Virus record (IMG/VR): IMGVR_UViG_3300020123_000589
Coordinates: 62,001 to 126,000 of that record
DNA from: a virus
DNA length: 64,000 nt
Strand: one strand, 5' to 3'
Below, piece after piece: positions 1,842 to 9,232 of the stretch (its first letter is position 1; every line of letters starts with the position of its first letter). Under the pieces are notes generated by a model that was not told the origin of the DNA, made no database searches, and worked only from the letters and a program-made list of their open reading frames with translations. Both the position numbers and the translations under genes were made by a program.

Positions 1842-2501
1842 ATGACATTTGTTTTAATTCATGGGTTAGCGAAAACTAAATTTTATAAAGCATGGCAGTG
1901 TATGAAATCTCGCTGTTTAAGTAGTAATGATCCTTCATACGTTCATTATGGCGCACGAGGGATAAAAGTTTGTGATAGATGGCTAGGCAAAGATGGATTT
2001 AGTCATTTTAAAGTAGATATGTATGAAAGTTATCTCAAACACGTAGAAGAGTTTGGTGAAAAGAACACAAGTTTTGAACGTATCGATCCCAACAATAATT
2101 ATGAACCTTCTAATTGTAAATGGGCTACTTGGAATGAGCAAGCCAGAACTAAAAGAAGTTCTTCTAAAACAGCAGATCTTAATGTACACTTAAAAAAGAA
2201 ACACGCATTACATCAAGTTTTACGTTATTTAGTTAATGGCAAAATCTTGGTATCAAAGTATGAAAAATATTTTGGGTGTTCTTTAGTCCAGCTTAAACAA
2301 CATATAAAATCTCAATTTCTTCTTGGTATGACTTGGGATAATTATGGTAGAAATCCAGATCAGTGGCAAATTGATCACATTGTTGGCGTAAATAATTTTG
2401 ATCTTTCTAGAGACATGGATGTATACAAATGCTTTAATTTTAAAAATCTTAGACCGTTGTGGTTGAAGGATCACAAAAAGAAATCAACTTTGCGGGTGTA
2501 A
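1842..2501 (+). CDS. HNH homing-type endonuclease
   Basis: A 219-residue protein. The N-terminal half carries the pattern W.CMKSRC....Y...GARGIKVCDRW, followed by FERIDPNNNYEPSNCKWATWNEQARTK, typical of phage AP2/HNH-type mobile endonucleases with DNA-binding repeats. The C-terminus has WQIDHIVGVNNFDL...NFKNLRPLW, the DH...N core of an HNH nuclease. Such enzymes nick or cut DNA and spread their own genes. It is inserted between two head genes without disrupting either, so it is a free-standing mobile gene. Confidence 0.85.
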   Translation: MTFVLIHGLAKTKFYKAWQCMKSRCLSSNDPSYVHYGARGIKVCDRWLGKDGFSHFKVDMYESYLKHVEEFGEKNTSFERIDPNNNYEPSNCKWATWNEQARTKRSSSKTADLNVHLKKKHALHQVLRYLVNGKILVSKYEKYFGCSLVQLKQHIKSQFLLGMTWDNYGRNPDQWQIDHIVGVNNFDLSRDMDVYKCFNFKNLRPLWLKDHKKKSTLRV

Positions 2502-2832: not shown

Positions 2833-5800
2833 ATGGCACTATTTAAACGTGGGACTATTCTAAAGATTAATAAAACAGCCGCATCTGCCACAGAGCTTAT
2901 TATTGATCGTCCTCTAACTGAAGAAACAAAAGTTGTTGAGGGTAAGAATCCTGAATTTTTATATTTTGTAGCAAAAGCCATTGCCGCTGGTGACGAAGGT
3001 CCATTGGGCAAGAATGGTTCTAGAGAGTATAATTATAACGGAAATGGCGATTATTTTCCTAAGAAAGAAATTGAAGGTGCTTACCAAACTTTTATAGGAA
3101 AGGGAATTTATCTCGACCACAATGCTTCAAGTGTTATGTATTCTGTTGGGAAGATTATTGATGCTTTTCCTACGGTAGATCCAGACAATAAAGAATGGAG
3201 CATTTCCTGTCTTGCTAAGATTGACAGAAAGCTTCATCCTGAAATTGCTCGTAAAGTTGAAACTGGTGAATTGAATACCGTTTCCATGGGTTGTTCTTGT
3301 GGAGAATCCAAATGTTCAGTTTGTGGAACAATCCTTCGAACGGACGATGACCCTAAGTGTGAACATCTATCTCCTGGCAAATTGATGCACGAGTTTCAAG
3401 CAGAAATTGATATTCCAGAGTATGGAATTAATAAGGGCCAAACAGTAAAAAGTTTTGCAATTAATTCACAAATCAACTTCAATGAGTTGAGTTTGGTTGG
3501 TGTACCTGCATGGCCCCGCGCATTTGTTACCACAATTTTAAGTAACTTAAAGGCTAATATCAGTAAGAAAGCTTCTTTAACCAAAGAAGAACAACTTGAT
3601 TTAGTAGCGCAGTTTGAAAAGCTTGTAGACACTTTAGATTCTACTACAAAAGAACAGGTCAAAGCCGAATTTTGCGGTTGCCCAATTGTCAAGGAGAATA
3701 ACATGTCCGATACCCCCCAGAAACAATCGAACGATGAAGTAACAGATTTATTGAAGAAAGTGAGTGCTTATGAGATGGAGAAGCTTGAGAATTATATCCA
3801 ACATAAGACTCGCAAAGCAGAGGCAACCGCTGCCGCTGATACAAAGACCAATGATTCCAATTGGATGAATGGTATACTTGAGAAAGCAAAAAATACGGCT
3901 GCTGGTAAAGTATTTGCAAGAACGATTCAGCGATTGGCTGAGGAAGAAAAGAAGCCAGAGTTTGTATATGAGAAGGAAGCTACGTCCGAAACTACTCTTA
4001 AACCAGTTAAGAAATCTTCTCTCACAGCCATGTTTACAGTAAATAAAGAAGAACCAATGAAATCTTCTTGGGCTCTTTTAGACGGTAGTGATAAAGTTAT
4101 TTTAGATGCTTCACTCAATGAGATTTGGGGAGATCAGTTTGAAGCTAATCAAGATTTTGCAGTTAGTGAGGAATATGGTAGAGCAATTGCCGCACGATTT
4201 TTGGACCCTAAACTTGGTGGCGTTGAGAAACTTGCCGACCTTTGGGATGTTTCATATAAATTAAATAAAGAGGCTGACATGAATAAATCATCCGAACACG
4301 GCGAATTTTTCAAAGCTAAAGATTTCTTTGTACCTGGAAGTGATTCTTCTAATAAATACACTCCAGAGGAGATTAAACATATGCAAGAAAAAGAACACAC
4401 AGAAGCCAAAGGCAAAAAGGTTGAAGCTGGGCATATAGATGAAAAATTTGATATTACGGAAGGTAAGGGAAAGCTCTTTGATGCAAAGAATTTTTTTGAA
4501 CCTGGGTCAGATTCCTCAAATAAATGGAATGATAAACGAGTGAAGATTGAATACTCAATTAGCAAACCTGCTGGTGAGTTTTTCAAACCAGGCTCTGATT
4601 CCTCAAATAATTATAAAGCCACGGATGTAAAAATGGAATACAACATTCCAGGTAAAGCACCAGAAGCAGGTCAGAAAGGCCCAGCAGCCCCTAAACATGA
4701 AGATATTAAAACTACGTATGATTTTAAGAAACCTGAAGGGGAATTCGTTAATACAAATAAGAAAACCAAGCTTGACGAAGAACATGCCAAATCCGAAGAA
4801 AAAATTAAAACAGGATACAAAGGCGATTTGATGTACGATGAAGAGAAAAAGCTGGACGAAAAGGGTGGAAAGAAAGAATCAGCCCTTAAATCAGCTGCTA
4901 AGACTGTAGGTGATTCTCCTGAAAGTTCCGTAAAGGGCGATATCTATCCAGAAAAGAGTCCAAAGACTTCTGGAGATGAACCAGAGTCTTCTTATAATAA
5001 AACAGCCAAAACCGTTGGTGATGCTCCAGAAGGTTCTGTTGAAGAAAGTCAGTATCCCAAAGCTTCTGAGCCTAATAAGGACCCAGAGACATCAGCAAAA
5101 GATATGGAATATAAGCACGAAAAGAACATGACAAAAACTCCTGATTCTTCAGTTCAAGAGAAAATGCCAGCACCCGCTAAATCAGATAAAGATCCTGAGA
5201 CATCTGTAAAAGATACAAAATTTGAAAAACATCCTGATTTAACTAGTAAGCCTGAAACTTCCTCAAAAGAAGATCAGTACCCTACACCAGCTAATCCAGA
5301 TAAAGAACCAGATTCTTCTGTTCAAAAGGGTTCCAATCTAAAAGTTGCTAAAACTCCTGCTGGCTGGGAACACGCAGTTCGTGAGCTTAAGAAAACCGAT
5401 GTTGATAATCCATGGGCAGTAGTTAATTGGATGAAAGATAAAGGATATACACCACATAAGAAATCAGAGCTAGATATGAAAGCTGATGCTGAAATGTGTG
5501 ATAAGTGTTCAATGCCTCTTCATGAATGCGCTTGCATGGCCGCTCAGGAAAATATGGCTCCATCAATGGATGCTCCTAAACCAGAAATGGGTTCTGCCTT
5601 CGATAAAGTTGAAGAGAAACTTACAATTGGCGATGGATATGATGCTTCTAAGGATAAAGAAACTAAAGAGATTATCATTTCTAAAGATGGTAAGGAAATG
5701 AAGCGTCTCCCAGATGGTTTCGGTTCTGATGTTGCTTCTGTTACAAGTCTTCTAAAAGCTGTTCTTGGTCTTCCAACAACAGAAGAGAAGAAAGATGAAA

Positions 5801-6387
5801 AACCAGGAGAAACACTTTCTCCAGTTGAAGAAACTGTTGAAAAAGTAGAAGTTCATCCCGAAATGTCTTCTCCCTCTGAAATGCCTTCTATGAAAGCTTC
5901 TGCTCTAGAAGTAGAATTAAATAAGAAAGCTGCTGAACTAAAAGCTAAGGAAGAAGAGATTATTAAGAAAGAAACGGCTATTCTTGCAAAAGAAGCTGAA
6001 ATTAAGGCTGATAAATTCCAAAAAGCCGTCGCTTCCCGCACAGATCGTTGCCGCAGAGTGATTGAAGCTATGCTTGATAAAAACGTCCTATCAATGGATG
6101 ATGCAGTATTGAAGGAAAAACTACAAGAAGGAACTTATCTTTTGGATGCACGTAAAGCTGCCCTTGATCACGCCATTAGTGCAAAGCTAAAAGAACTTAT
6201 GGCATCCAATGATGTTGAATTGGCTGCAATAGAGAAAACTGTAGATGGCATTAAGCTTCCTGAACAGGAAGTTTCTAAGAAAGCCAATCGTATTCCATTT
6301 GTTAAATGGGATGCAATTCCAACAGAAGATGATGAAATTAAAGGCATCTTTGATCAAATGGGAAAACGCAGTCACTGGAATCAATAA
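2833..6387 (+). CDS. prohead protease fused to scaffold/core protein
   Basis: An 1184-residue protein. Residues 1-240 look like a capsid maturation protease of the assemblin-like fold: LDHN with His96, TVSMGC with Ser151, and NELSLVGVPA at about 217-226. A Cys/His cluster (C154, C156, C161, C164, C176, H178) directly follows the candidate Ser and suggests a zinc knuckle insertion. From about 300 on the protein is highly charged and low in complexity. Three copies of a PGSDSSN motif start near residues 493, 549 and 581, and many (D/E)PE(T/S)S repeats lie at about 690-835. A second cysteine cluster (MCDKCSMPLHECAC) is near 890, and a long coiled coil near 1030-1080. I infer a protease-scaffold fusion that cleaves itself during head maturation; the catalytic assignment is from motif position only. 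Confidence 0.72.
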   Translation: MALFKRGTILKINKTAASATELIIDRPLTEETKVVEGKNPEFLYFVAKAIAAGDEGPLGKNGSREYNYNGNGDYFPKKEIEGAYQTFIGKGIYLDHNASSVMYSVGKIIDAFPTVDPDNKEWSISCLAKIDRKLHPEIARKVETGELNTVSMGCSCGESKCSVCGTILRTDDDPKCEHLSPGKLMHEFQAEIDIPEYGINKGQTVKSFAINSQINFNELSLVGVPAWPRAFVTTILSNLKANISKKASLTKEEQLDLVAQFEKLVDTLDSTTKEQVKAEFCGCPIVKENNMSDTPQKQSNDEVTDLLKKVSAYEMEKLENYIQHKTRKAEATAAADTKTNDSNWMNGILEKAKNTAAGKVFARTIQRLAEEEKKPEFVYEKEATSETTLKPVKKSSLTAMFTVNKEEPMKSSWALLDGSDKVILDASLNEIWGDQFEANQDFAVSEEYGRAIAARFLDPKLGGVEKLADLWDVSYKLNKEADMNKSSEHGEFFKAKDFFVPGSDSSNKYTPEEIKHMQEKEHTEAKGKKVEAGHIDEKFDITEGKGKLFDAKNFFEPGSDSSNKWNDKRVKIEYSISKPAGEFFKPGSDSSNNYKATDVKMEYNIPGKAPEAGQKGPAAPKHEDIKTTYDFKKPEGEFVNTNKKTKLDEEHAKSEEKIKTGYKGDLMYDEEKKLDEKGGKKESALKSAAKTVGDSPESSVKGDIYPEKSPKTSGDEPESSYNKTAKTVGDAPEGSVEESQYPKASEPNKDPETSAKDMEYKHEKNMTKTPDSSVQEKMPAPAKSDKDPETSVKDTKFEKHPDLTSKPETSSKEDQYPTPANPDKEPDSSVQKGSNLKVAKTPAGWEHAVRELKKTDVDNPWAVVNWMKDKGYTPHKKSELDMKADAEMCDKCSMPLHECACMAAQENMAPSMDAPKPEMGSAFDKVEEKLTIGDGYDASKDKETKEIIISKDGKEMKRLPDGFGSDVASVTSLLKAVLGLPTTEEKKDEKPGETLSPVEETVEKVEVHPEMSSPSEMPSMKASALEVELNKKAAELKAKEEEIIKKETAILAKEAEIKADKFQKAVASRTDRCRRVIEAMLDKNVLSMDDAVLKEKLQEGTYLLDARKAALDHAISAKLKELMASNDVELAAIEKTVDGIKLPEQEVSKKANRIPFVKWDAIPTEDDEIKGIFDQMGKRSHWNQ

Positions 6388-7152: not shown

Positions 7153-8121
7153 ATGTCAGAACAAGTTACCAAAACCGCTTCTCCTGATGACATTTATGCC
7201 GCAGGGCTTAGTGCCGCTCAGGTTGAAGAAAAGCTAACTCGTTTGATGAACAGCCCAGGCGGATTGCAGAAGATTGCTCAGCAAATGTTGAGCCCTCTAA
7301 AGCGCGAACTTCTATATGAAGGTCGTATTCGCCAGTTGTTCCAGACGTACAAACTCGCTCTAGGCGAGGAAGCCGTGTTTGACGCAGACTTAGACGTTCC
7401 AGCAGCATCCATTTCCGTTCATGGTTTGCCACAGGAACTACAGGTCGAAGCAGATCGTATCCGCGTCGAAACTGGCCCCCTAGCAACCCGTCCCTTGATC
7501 CGATGGAACGAATCCAACTTCCGAAAGTACGATGTTCTTAATCGTACCCAAGAACGCGCAAAAGCTTCCATTATGCTTCAAGAAGACACAAAAGGTTTTC
7601 AGCTCATTGACTTTGCTGCTGGTCTAACAAATCAGACCCCAGTAAATTCACTATTTGGAACCTCTGCTGCAACCAATAACCCAACCGTGCTACCTGCGAC
7701 TGGTAAATTGGACATGCAGACACTAGTAACAGGTATCGTTACACTACGTTCAAAGTTGCTCGTAGCTTCAAAGATTTATTTGAACCCACTACGAACCGCT
7801 GATCTCATGCTCTTCAACACAACCACATCAGGAACAGGCGGAGCCGGAATTTTCGCTCCTAACTTCCAGGATATGGCATTGAAAGCAGGTCGCGTAGGTG
7901 GAATCTGGGGCGTTGATGTCCTAGAGTCCGTCGTTGTTCCTACAGCTAACACATACGTTCTAGCTCCTGCGGATTATCTTGGCGTTCTCGCCGTTCGTAC
8001 TGATATTTCCGTCGAGACAATGAAAGATGTTAACCAGATGGCCGACATTTTCGCAATCTGGGAAGATATCGGCTTCCTCATTCGCTACGCTAAATCGATA
8101 GTAAAAATCGTAGTTTCTTAA
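7153..8121 (+). CDS. major capsid protein (HK97-like)
   Basis: A 322-residue protein with strong AAGGAG at 7140-7145. Its codon use is richer in C/G than its neighbours, typical of a highly expressed capsid gene. The N-terminal helical arm (about 1-75) is followed by an HK97-like body; motifs include ETGPLATRPLIRWNESNF and a late ...GVLAVRTDISVETMKDVNQMADIFAIWEDIGFLIRYAK. As read without splicing the gene ends at 8121 with KSIVKIVVS. A group I intron is predicted at 8092-8333; joining 7153-8091 to 8334-8363 gives the same 322 residues except Ser315 becomes Gly. Confidence 0.88.
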   Translation: MSEQVTKTASPDDIYAAGLSAAQVEEKLTRLMNSPGGLQKIAQQMLSPLKRELLYEGRIRQLFQTYKLALGEEAVFDADLDVPAASISVHGLPQELQVEADRIRVETGPLATRPLIRWNESNFRKYDVLNRTQERAKASIMLQEDTKGFQLIDFAAGLTNQTPVNSLFGTSAATNNPTVLPATGKLDMQTLVTGIVTLRSKLLVASKIYLNPLRTADLMLFNTTTSGTGGAGIFAPNFQDMALKAGRVGGIWGVDVLESVVVPTANTYVLAPADYLGVLAVRTDISVETMKDVNQMADIFAIWEDIGFLIRYAKSIVKIVVS

Positions 8122-8333
8122 GTCCCTTGGCGTAGTAAAATTGGGCCGTATCGGTGAAACTCTTACCAAGTAATGTTGGAGACAATACCGAGGAAAGACT
8201 TGAAAAATTTCAAGTATCCGTAGAGACTAAACGCCCGACTCCGAAAGGATGAAGTTATAGTCCGACCTTCACAGAAATGTGAAGAGGTTTCCAGAAATGT
8301 GAAATCCATCTCGAAAGAGAAAGTAACAAATCG
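8092..8333 (+). ncRNA. group I intron in the major capsid gene
   Basis: Both splice sites are fixed by pairing. The internal guide GGCGTAG (8129-8135) pairs with the end of exon 1, CTACGCT (8085-8091), with the required U.G wobble at the cut (P1). The adjacent CCCTT (8124-8128) pairs with AAGGG at the start of exon 2 (P10). Core helices are visible: P3 GGGCCGT with ACGCCC, P7 GACTA with TAGTC inside the conserved R and S segments, and 3' hairpins such as CTTCAC/GTGAAG and TCTCGAAAGAGA. The last base is G, as expected. It is 242 bases long with no internal gene. Its first 30 bases re-encode the capsid C-terminus. Confidence 0.9.
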
Positions 8334-8363
8334 AAGGGCATTGTTAAAATTGTCGTTAGCTAA
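8334..8363 (+). other. exon 2 of the major capsid gene
   Basis: Nine codons plus stop encoding KGIVKIVVS, joined in frame to codon 313 (GCT, 8089-8091) after removal of the intron. The same nine residues except one (Ser for Gly) are encoded at the start of the intron with mostly different synonymous codons. Confidence 0.85.
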
Positions 8364-8452: not shown

Positions 8453-9232
8453 ATGAAGCGAAAATGCTTAGGTTGTTCAATTGAGTTTGAAGTTACCTCC
8501 AAACAATTAGATAAAAGATTTTGTACTCAAAGATGTTGGGGTAAGTATCAAACTGAACATAAATTAAATATGAAGGCTGAATTACGAAATCGCCCAACGG
8601 TAGATGAAGTAAAGAAAGCTTTTTCAGAGCAAAGAATAAAATTGGTACAATCTTTAACTTTCGTTGATTTTGCTTTATCTGGTGTTTATATTATCATTAA
8701 TATTGTTAACAATATGATTTACATAGGTTCTTCCAAAGATATTGAAGCTCGATGGAGAGAACATGTGCATAAATTTTATGGAAATAGACACGAAAATGAT
8801 AAATTGCAGAAAGCTTGGAACAAATATGGGGAAAAGGCTTTCCAATTTAAAATTTTAGAAGTTGTTCAAGAGAAAAACCTTGTAGTCCGAGAACAATATT
8901 ATTTAGATTTGTATAAACCTTACGAAAGACATATCGGCTACAATTTATATAAAACAGCTTTTAGTCCTTTAGGAAATGTTTGGACGGAAGAACAGAAAGC
9001 AAATTTAAGAGTCGTTCGACATAATCAAAAACCTAGAAAATTATATTGTAAATGGTGCAAAACGGTTTTTATTGTAAAAGGCCAAAACGCTAAATTTTGT
9101 TCACATAAATGTCGAGACAAAGCCAGATGGCAGAAAGATAAAGCTAAAAACCATTCAGGAAAACGTAAGACATTAAAAGAACTATTTGATTCTTTAACTG
9201 ATGGTGAATTAGCAACAATTTTGGAAGACTAA
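8453..9232 (+). CDS. GIY-YIG homing endonuclease
   Basis: A 259-residue protein. It opens with a zinc-finger-like segment (CLGCSIEFEV...RFCTQRCWGKYQ). A GIY-YIG nuclease domain follows at about 82-170: SGVYIIINIVNNMIYIGSSKD, then EARWREH, KLQKAWNKYGEKAFQFKILE and EQYYLDLYKPYERHIGYNLYK. A second Cys4 element near the C-terminus (YCKWCKTVFIVK...FCSHKCRDKARW) is a likely DNA-binding finger. It lies just downstream of an ORF-less group I intron, an arrangement known in other phages where a free-standing enzyme drives spread of the neighbouring intron. No Shine-Dalgarno precedes it. Confidence 0.9.
   Translation: MKRKCLGCSIEFEVTSKQLDKRFCTQRCWGKYQTEHKLNMKAELRNRPTVDEVKKAFSEQRIKLVQSLTFVDFALSGVYIIINIVNNMIYIGSSKDIEARWREHVHKFYGNRHENDKLQKAWNKYGEKAFQFKILEVVQEKNLVVREQYYLDLYKPYERHIGYNLYKTAFSPLGNVWTEEQKANLRVVRHNQKPRKLYCKWCKTVFIVKGQNAKFCSHKCRDKARWQKDKAKNHSGKRKTLKELFDSLTDGELATILED

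What the first reader, a model, noticed from the sequence alone, without database searches (positions are those of the whole stretch)
8085..8363. Capsid-gene group I intron whose 5' end re-encodes the exon it interrupts
Splice sites can be placed to the base: guide GGCGTAG pairs with CTACGCT of exon 1, including the U.G wobble, and CCCTT pairs with AAGGG of exon 2, so the joined exons are fully covered by one 12-base guide. The intron then begins with 30 bases that encode KSIVKIVVS plus stop, in frame with exon 1, while exon 2 encodes KGIVKIVVS plus stop with mostly different synonymous codons. Spliced and unspliced mRNA therefore both give a 322-residue capsid protein that differs only at residue 315 (Ser or Gly). 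This looks like a selfish intron made harmless by carrying a recoded copy of its downstream exon. The recoding may also stop recombination or endonuclease cutting between the copies.
Basis: partly seen in the sequence, partly recalled or inferred. Interest (0 to 1): 0.92.

Follow-up and report, generated by a model that had tools for sequence, protein, structure and literature searches.

The report
Capsid-gene intron carrying a spare exon
A self-splicing intron near the end of a phage capsid gene begins with a re-spelled copy of the protein tail it cuts off, so the RNA should give a full-length capsid protein whether or not it is spliced, and four other phages carry a different intron with the same arrangement.

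Summary
A 242-nt group I intron (8092-8333) interrupts the major capsid gene nine codons before its end. One 12-nt guide pairs with both splice sites, and the intron starts with 30 nt encoding KSIVKIVVS-stop, against KGIVKIVVS-stop in exon 2. Two close intron-free relatives show exon 2 is the native end. A second carrier (L001) has the identical copy.

I screened 365 group I core-motif hits (328 loci). Four more cases turned up (L201, L257, L308, L309), all in distantly related capsid genes and all from one unrelated LAGLIDADG-encoding intron. There the intron re-encodes 29-32 residues, 87-94% identical to that phage's own exon 2 with synonymous sites near saturation, and stops 1-10 nt before the guide. 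Copy and exon share each phage's own C-terminal sequence and length. That pattern fits selection on the protein made from unspliced RNA.

The mimic is not built into either intron: relatives inserted elsewhere (L051, L209) lack it. Fungal mitochondrial elements carrying a host C-terminus, and Tremella introns duplicating the next exon, are the closest precedents. I found no phage precedent, nor one with both ends complete around an intact ribozyme. Splicing and function are inferred; no RNA or protein data exist here.

The parts
7153..8091 (+). Exon 1 of the major capsid gene (313 codons)
   Evidence: ORF; PHROG 2522 major head protein E 1.1e-35; relatives
8085..8091 (+). 5' strand of P1, CTACGCT; 5' splice site after 8091
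   Evidence: sequence; covaries with the guide in the homologous intron of L051
8092..8333 (+). Group I intron without an ORF, 242 nt
   Evidence: Rfam RF00028 E 3.7e-11; related phage introns; absent from L002/L003
8092..8121 (+). Exon mimic: KSIVKIVVS plus TAA, in frame with exon 1, lies in the P1 loop
   Evidence: sequence; identical 30/30 in L001
8124..8128 (+). P10 guide CCCTT, pairs with exon 2 AAGGG
   Evidence: sequence; covaries (CAAAT with ATTTG) in L051
8129..8135 (+). P1 guide GGCGTAG
   Evidence: sequence
8143..8236 (+). P3 5' strand to P3 3' strand, with P4, P5, P6 and the P7 5' strand AGAGACTA 8222-8229
   Evidence: cmscan alignment, fold, motif positions
8238..8263 (+). P8 hairpin and P7 3' strand TATAGTCC 8256-8263
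8267..8320 (+). Three P9-type hairpins (8267-8284, 8286-8307, 8309-8320)
   Evidence: fold, motif positions
8334..8363 (+). Exon 2: KGIVKIVVS plus TAA, native end of the capsid gene
   Evidence: same peptide in intron-free L002/L003; followed by a 3' flank similar to that of L002
8453..9232 (+). Free-standing GIY-YIG homing endonuclease gene, candidate mobility partner
   Evidence: Pfam PF01541 E 3.1e-12; 91% identical in L001, no significant match in L002/L003

Best explanation
This is a group I intron with an exon mimic in its P1 loop. The ribozyme uses one 12-nt guide to cut after CTACGCT and join AAGGG, giving the native tail (Gly315). Ribosomes that pass the 5' splice site before or without splicing read the mimic, add an almost identical tail and stop just before the guide, so they make a full-length capsid subunit and do not run into the ribozyme core. 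The mimic is kept by selection because truncated or wrong-tailed subunits of an abundant, self-assembling protein would be costly. Shown here: the anatomy, the native end, and recurrence with two unrelated introns. Inferred: splicing, translation of unspliced RNA, and fitness benefit.
For: Full 12-nt guide match; in the homologous intron of L051, at another site of the capsid gene, both halves of the guide changed together with the exons. Native end shown by intron-free relatives. Four more phages with a LAGLIDADG intron about 30 codons before the end of a related capsid gene all carry a mimic; PHROG 2522 links L201 to the same capsid family. Copy against exon 2: 20-26 nt changes but 26/30 to 29/31 residues identical, never reached in 20,000 simulated neutral copies in any of the five tested pairs; L201 pS 1.08 against pN 0.06. 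Copies match their own phage's exon (0.87-0.94) better than each other (0.60-0.80) and follow its C-terminal sequence and length (DNVTT/DNVTA, GGLS/GGLT, DVTTLA/DVTSLA, LKVA/IKVA). Stops fall 1-10 nt before the guide in all six. Related introns at other sites, L051 and L209, have no mimic.
Against: No RNA or protein data. Only two carriers at this site, with identical copies, so selection on the 9-codon mimic cannot be tested on its own. L051 has two group I introns about 23 and 32 codons before the capsid end without mimic, so the mimic is not required. The second codon of each mimic departs from the native residue (Gly to Ser; Pro to Val or Cys). The simulation does not exclude that the copy was captured from a related phage whose tail had already diverged under ordinary capsid constraint.
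Confidence: 0.7

Rival explanations
1. Captured tail: the intron arrived by homing with an imprecise 5' junction, so the recipient's own gene end stayed between the 5' splice site and the guide while a donor's end became exon 2. The mimic is then a by-product of recombination and harmless from the start; continued selection is not needed.
For: Codons 300-322 differ from L002 at 15 of 23 against about 4 per 23 elsewhere, but at 3 of 23 from carrier L001, as expected of an exon tract brought in with the intron. The copy shares ATC GTA GTT with L002's native tail. Allomyces and Glomus elements work this way (PMC3630166).
Against: Stop codons sit 1-10 nt from the guide in all six cases; copies track their own phage's tail in four divergent carriers of one intron, which would need repeated captures at the same place.
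Confidence: 0.2
2. The insertion is no longer spliced: the capsid is made only from the copy, and exon 2 is an abandoned relic, as in fungal mitochondrial gene hybrids.
For: The copy alone gives a full-length protein; RT-PCR showed this outcome for most such elements in fungi. In L257 the copy is closer to intron-free relatives than exon 2 is.
Against: P1, P10, core and terminal G are intact. Exon 2 has the invariant Gly while the copy has Ser. Window and L001 exon 2 differ only by one synonymous change.
Confidence: 0.07
3. Programmed isoforms: the splicing ratio sets the ratio of Ser315 to Gly315 subunits, and both forms have a role in the virion.
For: Both products are full length and differ at a residue that is otherwise invariant; in the other intron the difference is again at the second codon (Pro to Val/Cys).
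Against: Different substitutions in the two systems; the homologous intron of L051 also starts AAA and has a T soon after, so the Ser codon may simply reflect the intron's own 5' end.
Confidence: 0.03

Closest known systems
Phage ORF-less group I introns with a neighbouring free-standing endonuclease (collaborative homing; PMC3984707, PMC10448857)
   Same: Small group I intron without ORF, homing endonuclease gene next to the host gene, essential virion gene
   Different: Those accounts mention no copy of the downstream exon in the intron; cutting at the insertion site is untested here
Capsid-gene intron of mycobacteriophage LittleE (PMC3706429)
   Same: Group I-type intron in a major capsid gene, shown there to splice
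   Different: The passages read describe no duplicated tail; its endonuclease ORF is inside the intron
Fungal mitochondrial mobile ORFs with a carried C-terminus (Allomyces atp6; Glomus atp6, atp9, cox2, nad3; PMC3630166)
   Same: A mobile element supplies a recoded copy of the gene end upstream of the native end (64-81% DNA identity)
   Different: The hybrid uses the carried tail and in atp6 and cox2 the native tail is not in the mRNA; here the native tail should be rejoined by an intact ribozyme
Tremella fuciformis mitochondrial introns with a 5' duplication of the following exon (PMC7315562)
   Same: The 5' part of the intron encodes an analogue of the next exon; nad4-i2 was confirmed as a real intron
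   Different: Introns of about 2.1-2.2 kb in mitochondria, interpreted as host-gene fragment exchange; most no longer acted as introns; no fail-safe translation proposed in the sections I read
In-frame stop just inside phage group I introns (T4 td; PMC3073962)
   Same: Translation stops before the structured intron core
   Different: There the stop closely follows the junction; here translation first completes the protein

Membership tests
Group I intron | Match to the group I covariance model | tested here: met
   RF00028 47.2 bits, E 3.7e-11; below the gathering score of 50
Group I intron | P1 with U.G at the 5' splice site, P10, terminal G | tested here: met
   covariation with L051
Group I intron | Conserved P3-P8 core and P7 | tested here: met
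   AGAGACTA / TATAGTCC, cmscan alignment
Group I intron | Self-splicing | not testable with these tools
   needs RNA
Collaborative homing pair | ORF-less intron and adjacent free-standing endonuclease, both absent from the empty allele | tested here: inconclusive
   Both in window and L001, both absent from L002/L003; but several relatives have the GIY-YIG gene without the intron
Collaborative homing pair | Endonuclease cuts the intron insertion site | not testable with these tools
   needs enzyme assay
Fungal mobile ORF / C-terminal replacement | Recoded copy of the gene end lies upstream of the native end | tested here: met
   19/30 nt identity, 8/9 residues
Fungal mobile ORF / C-terminal replacement | Element is not spliced and the native end is out of use | tested here: inconclusive
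   Intact splice signals and conserved exon 2 argue against it; no RNA data

The most novel reading that the evidence does not exclude
Exon-mimic introns are a recurrent adaptation in phages: when a group I intron lodges near the end of an essential abundant protein gene, its P1 loop evolves into a recoded spare exon that keeps tracking the host protein, so splicing becomes optional and the cost of the intron almost vanishes.
Probability: 0.6. Interest if true: 0.85.

Novelty: new variant of a known kind. Interest (0 to 1): 0.77.

Why it matters
Transcription and translation are coupled in bacteria, so ribosomes often enter an intron before it can splice; this is one proposed reason why group I introns are rare in bacterial protein genes (PMC3984707). 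A recoded spare exon would solve that problem. It gives a simple test of how much unspliced RNA is translated, and shows RNA structure and protein code sharing one short segment.

Tried and rejected
Rfam at the gathering threshold and a broad E-value scan missed the intron; searching the short stretch alone found it. Hits L256, L252 and L354 in the screen: in L256 the repeated peptide is the translated core of a second intron; I judged L252 and L354 the same on their peptides without checking their DNA. A P10-avoidance reason for Gly to Ser fits the window but not the other family, where P10 is mostly 1-4 bp by hand count. A first intron-core pattern was mistyped and found nothing. Plasmids held no related intron. 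Looking for more carriers by the Ser peptide found only L001. A link between the GIY-YIG gene and the intron is not general.

Full report
Observation. Capsid exon 1 runs 7153-8091, the intron 8092-8333, exon 2 8334-8363. The guide 8124-8135 (CCCTTGGCGTAG) is complementary to the joined exons CTACGCT/AAGGG over all 12 positions, with the U.G pair at the 5' splice site. The intron's first 30 bases continue the reading frame as KSIVKIVVS-stop; exon 2 is KGIVKIVVS-stop. Both RNAs encode 322 residues. Chance is not a credible source of the match.

Identity. Rfam Intron_gpI matches at E 3.7e-11 when the stretch is searched alone, and 44.9 bits in L001. Introns of Vibrio, Escherichia and Staphylococcus phages and of an uncultured phage share core blocks by blastn. 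The host gene is a major head protein (PHROG 2522) of a virus record of 151 kb.

Which end is native. 53 relatives were fetched. L002 and L003, 98% identical in protein, have no intron and end in KGIVKIVVS. Every intron-free tail among the 41 loci compared has Gly at position 315; Ser occurs only in the intron copies. Exon 2 is therefore native and the copy is derived. The tail IVVS is special to this small clade, so the copy came from this clade.

Second carrier and flanks. L001 has the same intron, an identical copy, and the GIY-YIG gene. Between window and L002, codons 300-322 differ at 15 of 23, against about 4 per 23 in the rest of the gene; between window and L001 only 3 of 23 differ there. 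This is what co-conversion of exons during homing would leave; selection to change the target site is an alternative.

The mimic is not intrinsic to the intron. L051 carries a clearly homologous intron (5761-6006) about 23 codons before the capsid end. Its guide CAAATGGTGAAG matches its own junction CTTCGCT/ATTTG, so both P1 and P10 covary with the site, which confirms the splice sites in the window. Its P1 loop has about the same length (38 against 37 nt) but reads KIKQVCKKLYLQMVK-stop, unrelated to its exon 2.

Recurrence. I scanned group I core motifs in viral and genome collections and compared, for each intron, the read-through tail with downstream tails. 365 distinct core-motif hits in 328 loci (not each checked to be a true intron) gave six real cases: window, L001, L201, L257, L308, L309. 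The last four share a LAGLIDADG intron (Pfam; Rfam core matches) in a capsid gene that belongs distantly to the same family. By hand placement all use the same site, with exon 1 ending in AT and a P1 guide of GTGTC or GTATC (G.U at the splice site; GATAT/GTATC and GACAT/GTGTC covary; L308 keeps only four pairs). This keeps the frame, and spliced and unspliced proteins have equal length. Spliced RNA restores the Pro found at that position in the intron-free relatives whose tails could be read; the mimic has Val or Cys.

Selection. In the four pairs 20-26 nucleotides differ but 26-29 of 29-32 residues agree; none of 20,000 simulated neutral copies of each pair did as well. pS is 0.72-1.08 and pN 0.06-0.10 in the two pairs measured. 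Each copy resembles its own phage's exon more than other copies, including changes of C-terminal sequence and length, while DNA identity within a pair is only 0.72-0.78, which argues against recent gene conversion of the segment. Either the copy tracks the host protein under selection, or copies were captured repeatedly from close relatives. I prefer the first, because all six mimics end 1-10 nt before the guide.

Mechanism. Published work says ribosomes can reach the 5' junction before the intron is complete, and that a stop just inside the intron protects the core (PMC3073962, PMC3984707). Here the stop still precedes the guide, but the ribosome has by then made a complete tail. Steps shown: anatomy, native end, recurrence, coding constraint. 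Steps inferred: splicing, amount of unspliced translation, benefit.

Prior art. Elements that bring a recoded gene end are known from fungal mitochondria, and Tremella introns with a 5' copy of the next exon, one of them confirmed as spliced, are the nearest match. My searches of the open-paper library gave no phage case. The finding is a new variant: phage, capsid gene, copy in the P1 loop, both ends complete. Most subscription papers are not in that library.

Noticed in passing
L051 3314-6066: A major capsid gene of a relative appears to be interrupted at four places; Rfam scores two as group I (48.8 and 41.6 bits) and a third, at 58.9 bits, lies near the first break; one of the inserts holds an ORF. 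Unusually heavily interrupted for a capsid gene.
   Followed up: partly
L049 about 3890-5000: A relative's capsid gene carries a group I intron with an ORF of about 310 aa after roughly residue 35; no mimic.
   Followed up: partly
window 8453-9232: GIY-YIG endonuclease genes are found near the capsid gene in several relatives with or without introns (L001, L008-L011, L016, L017, L049, L051).
   Followed up: partly
window 8107-8115: The mimic contains CGTAG, which could pair with CTACG at the 5' splice site and compete with the real guide; whether this tunes splicing is unknown.
   Followed up: no
window 8092-8097 and 8328-8333: AAATCG occurs at both ends of the intron; L001 lacks it at the 3' end, so probably chance.
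   Followed up: partly
window 1842-2501: HNH-type homing endonuclease-like gene downstream of the portal gene.
   Followed up: no
L055 740-960: Uncultured 485 kb phage record (LR745208): a group I intron apparently inside a tRNA gene, with a core similar to that of the window intron (71% over 123 nt).
   Followed up: no
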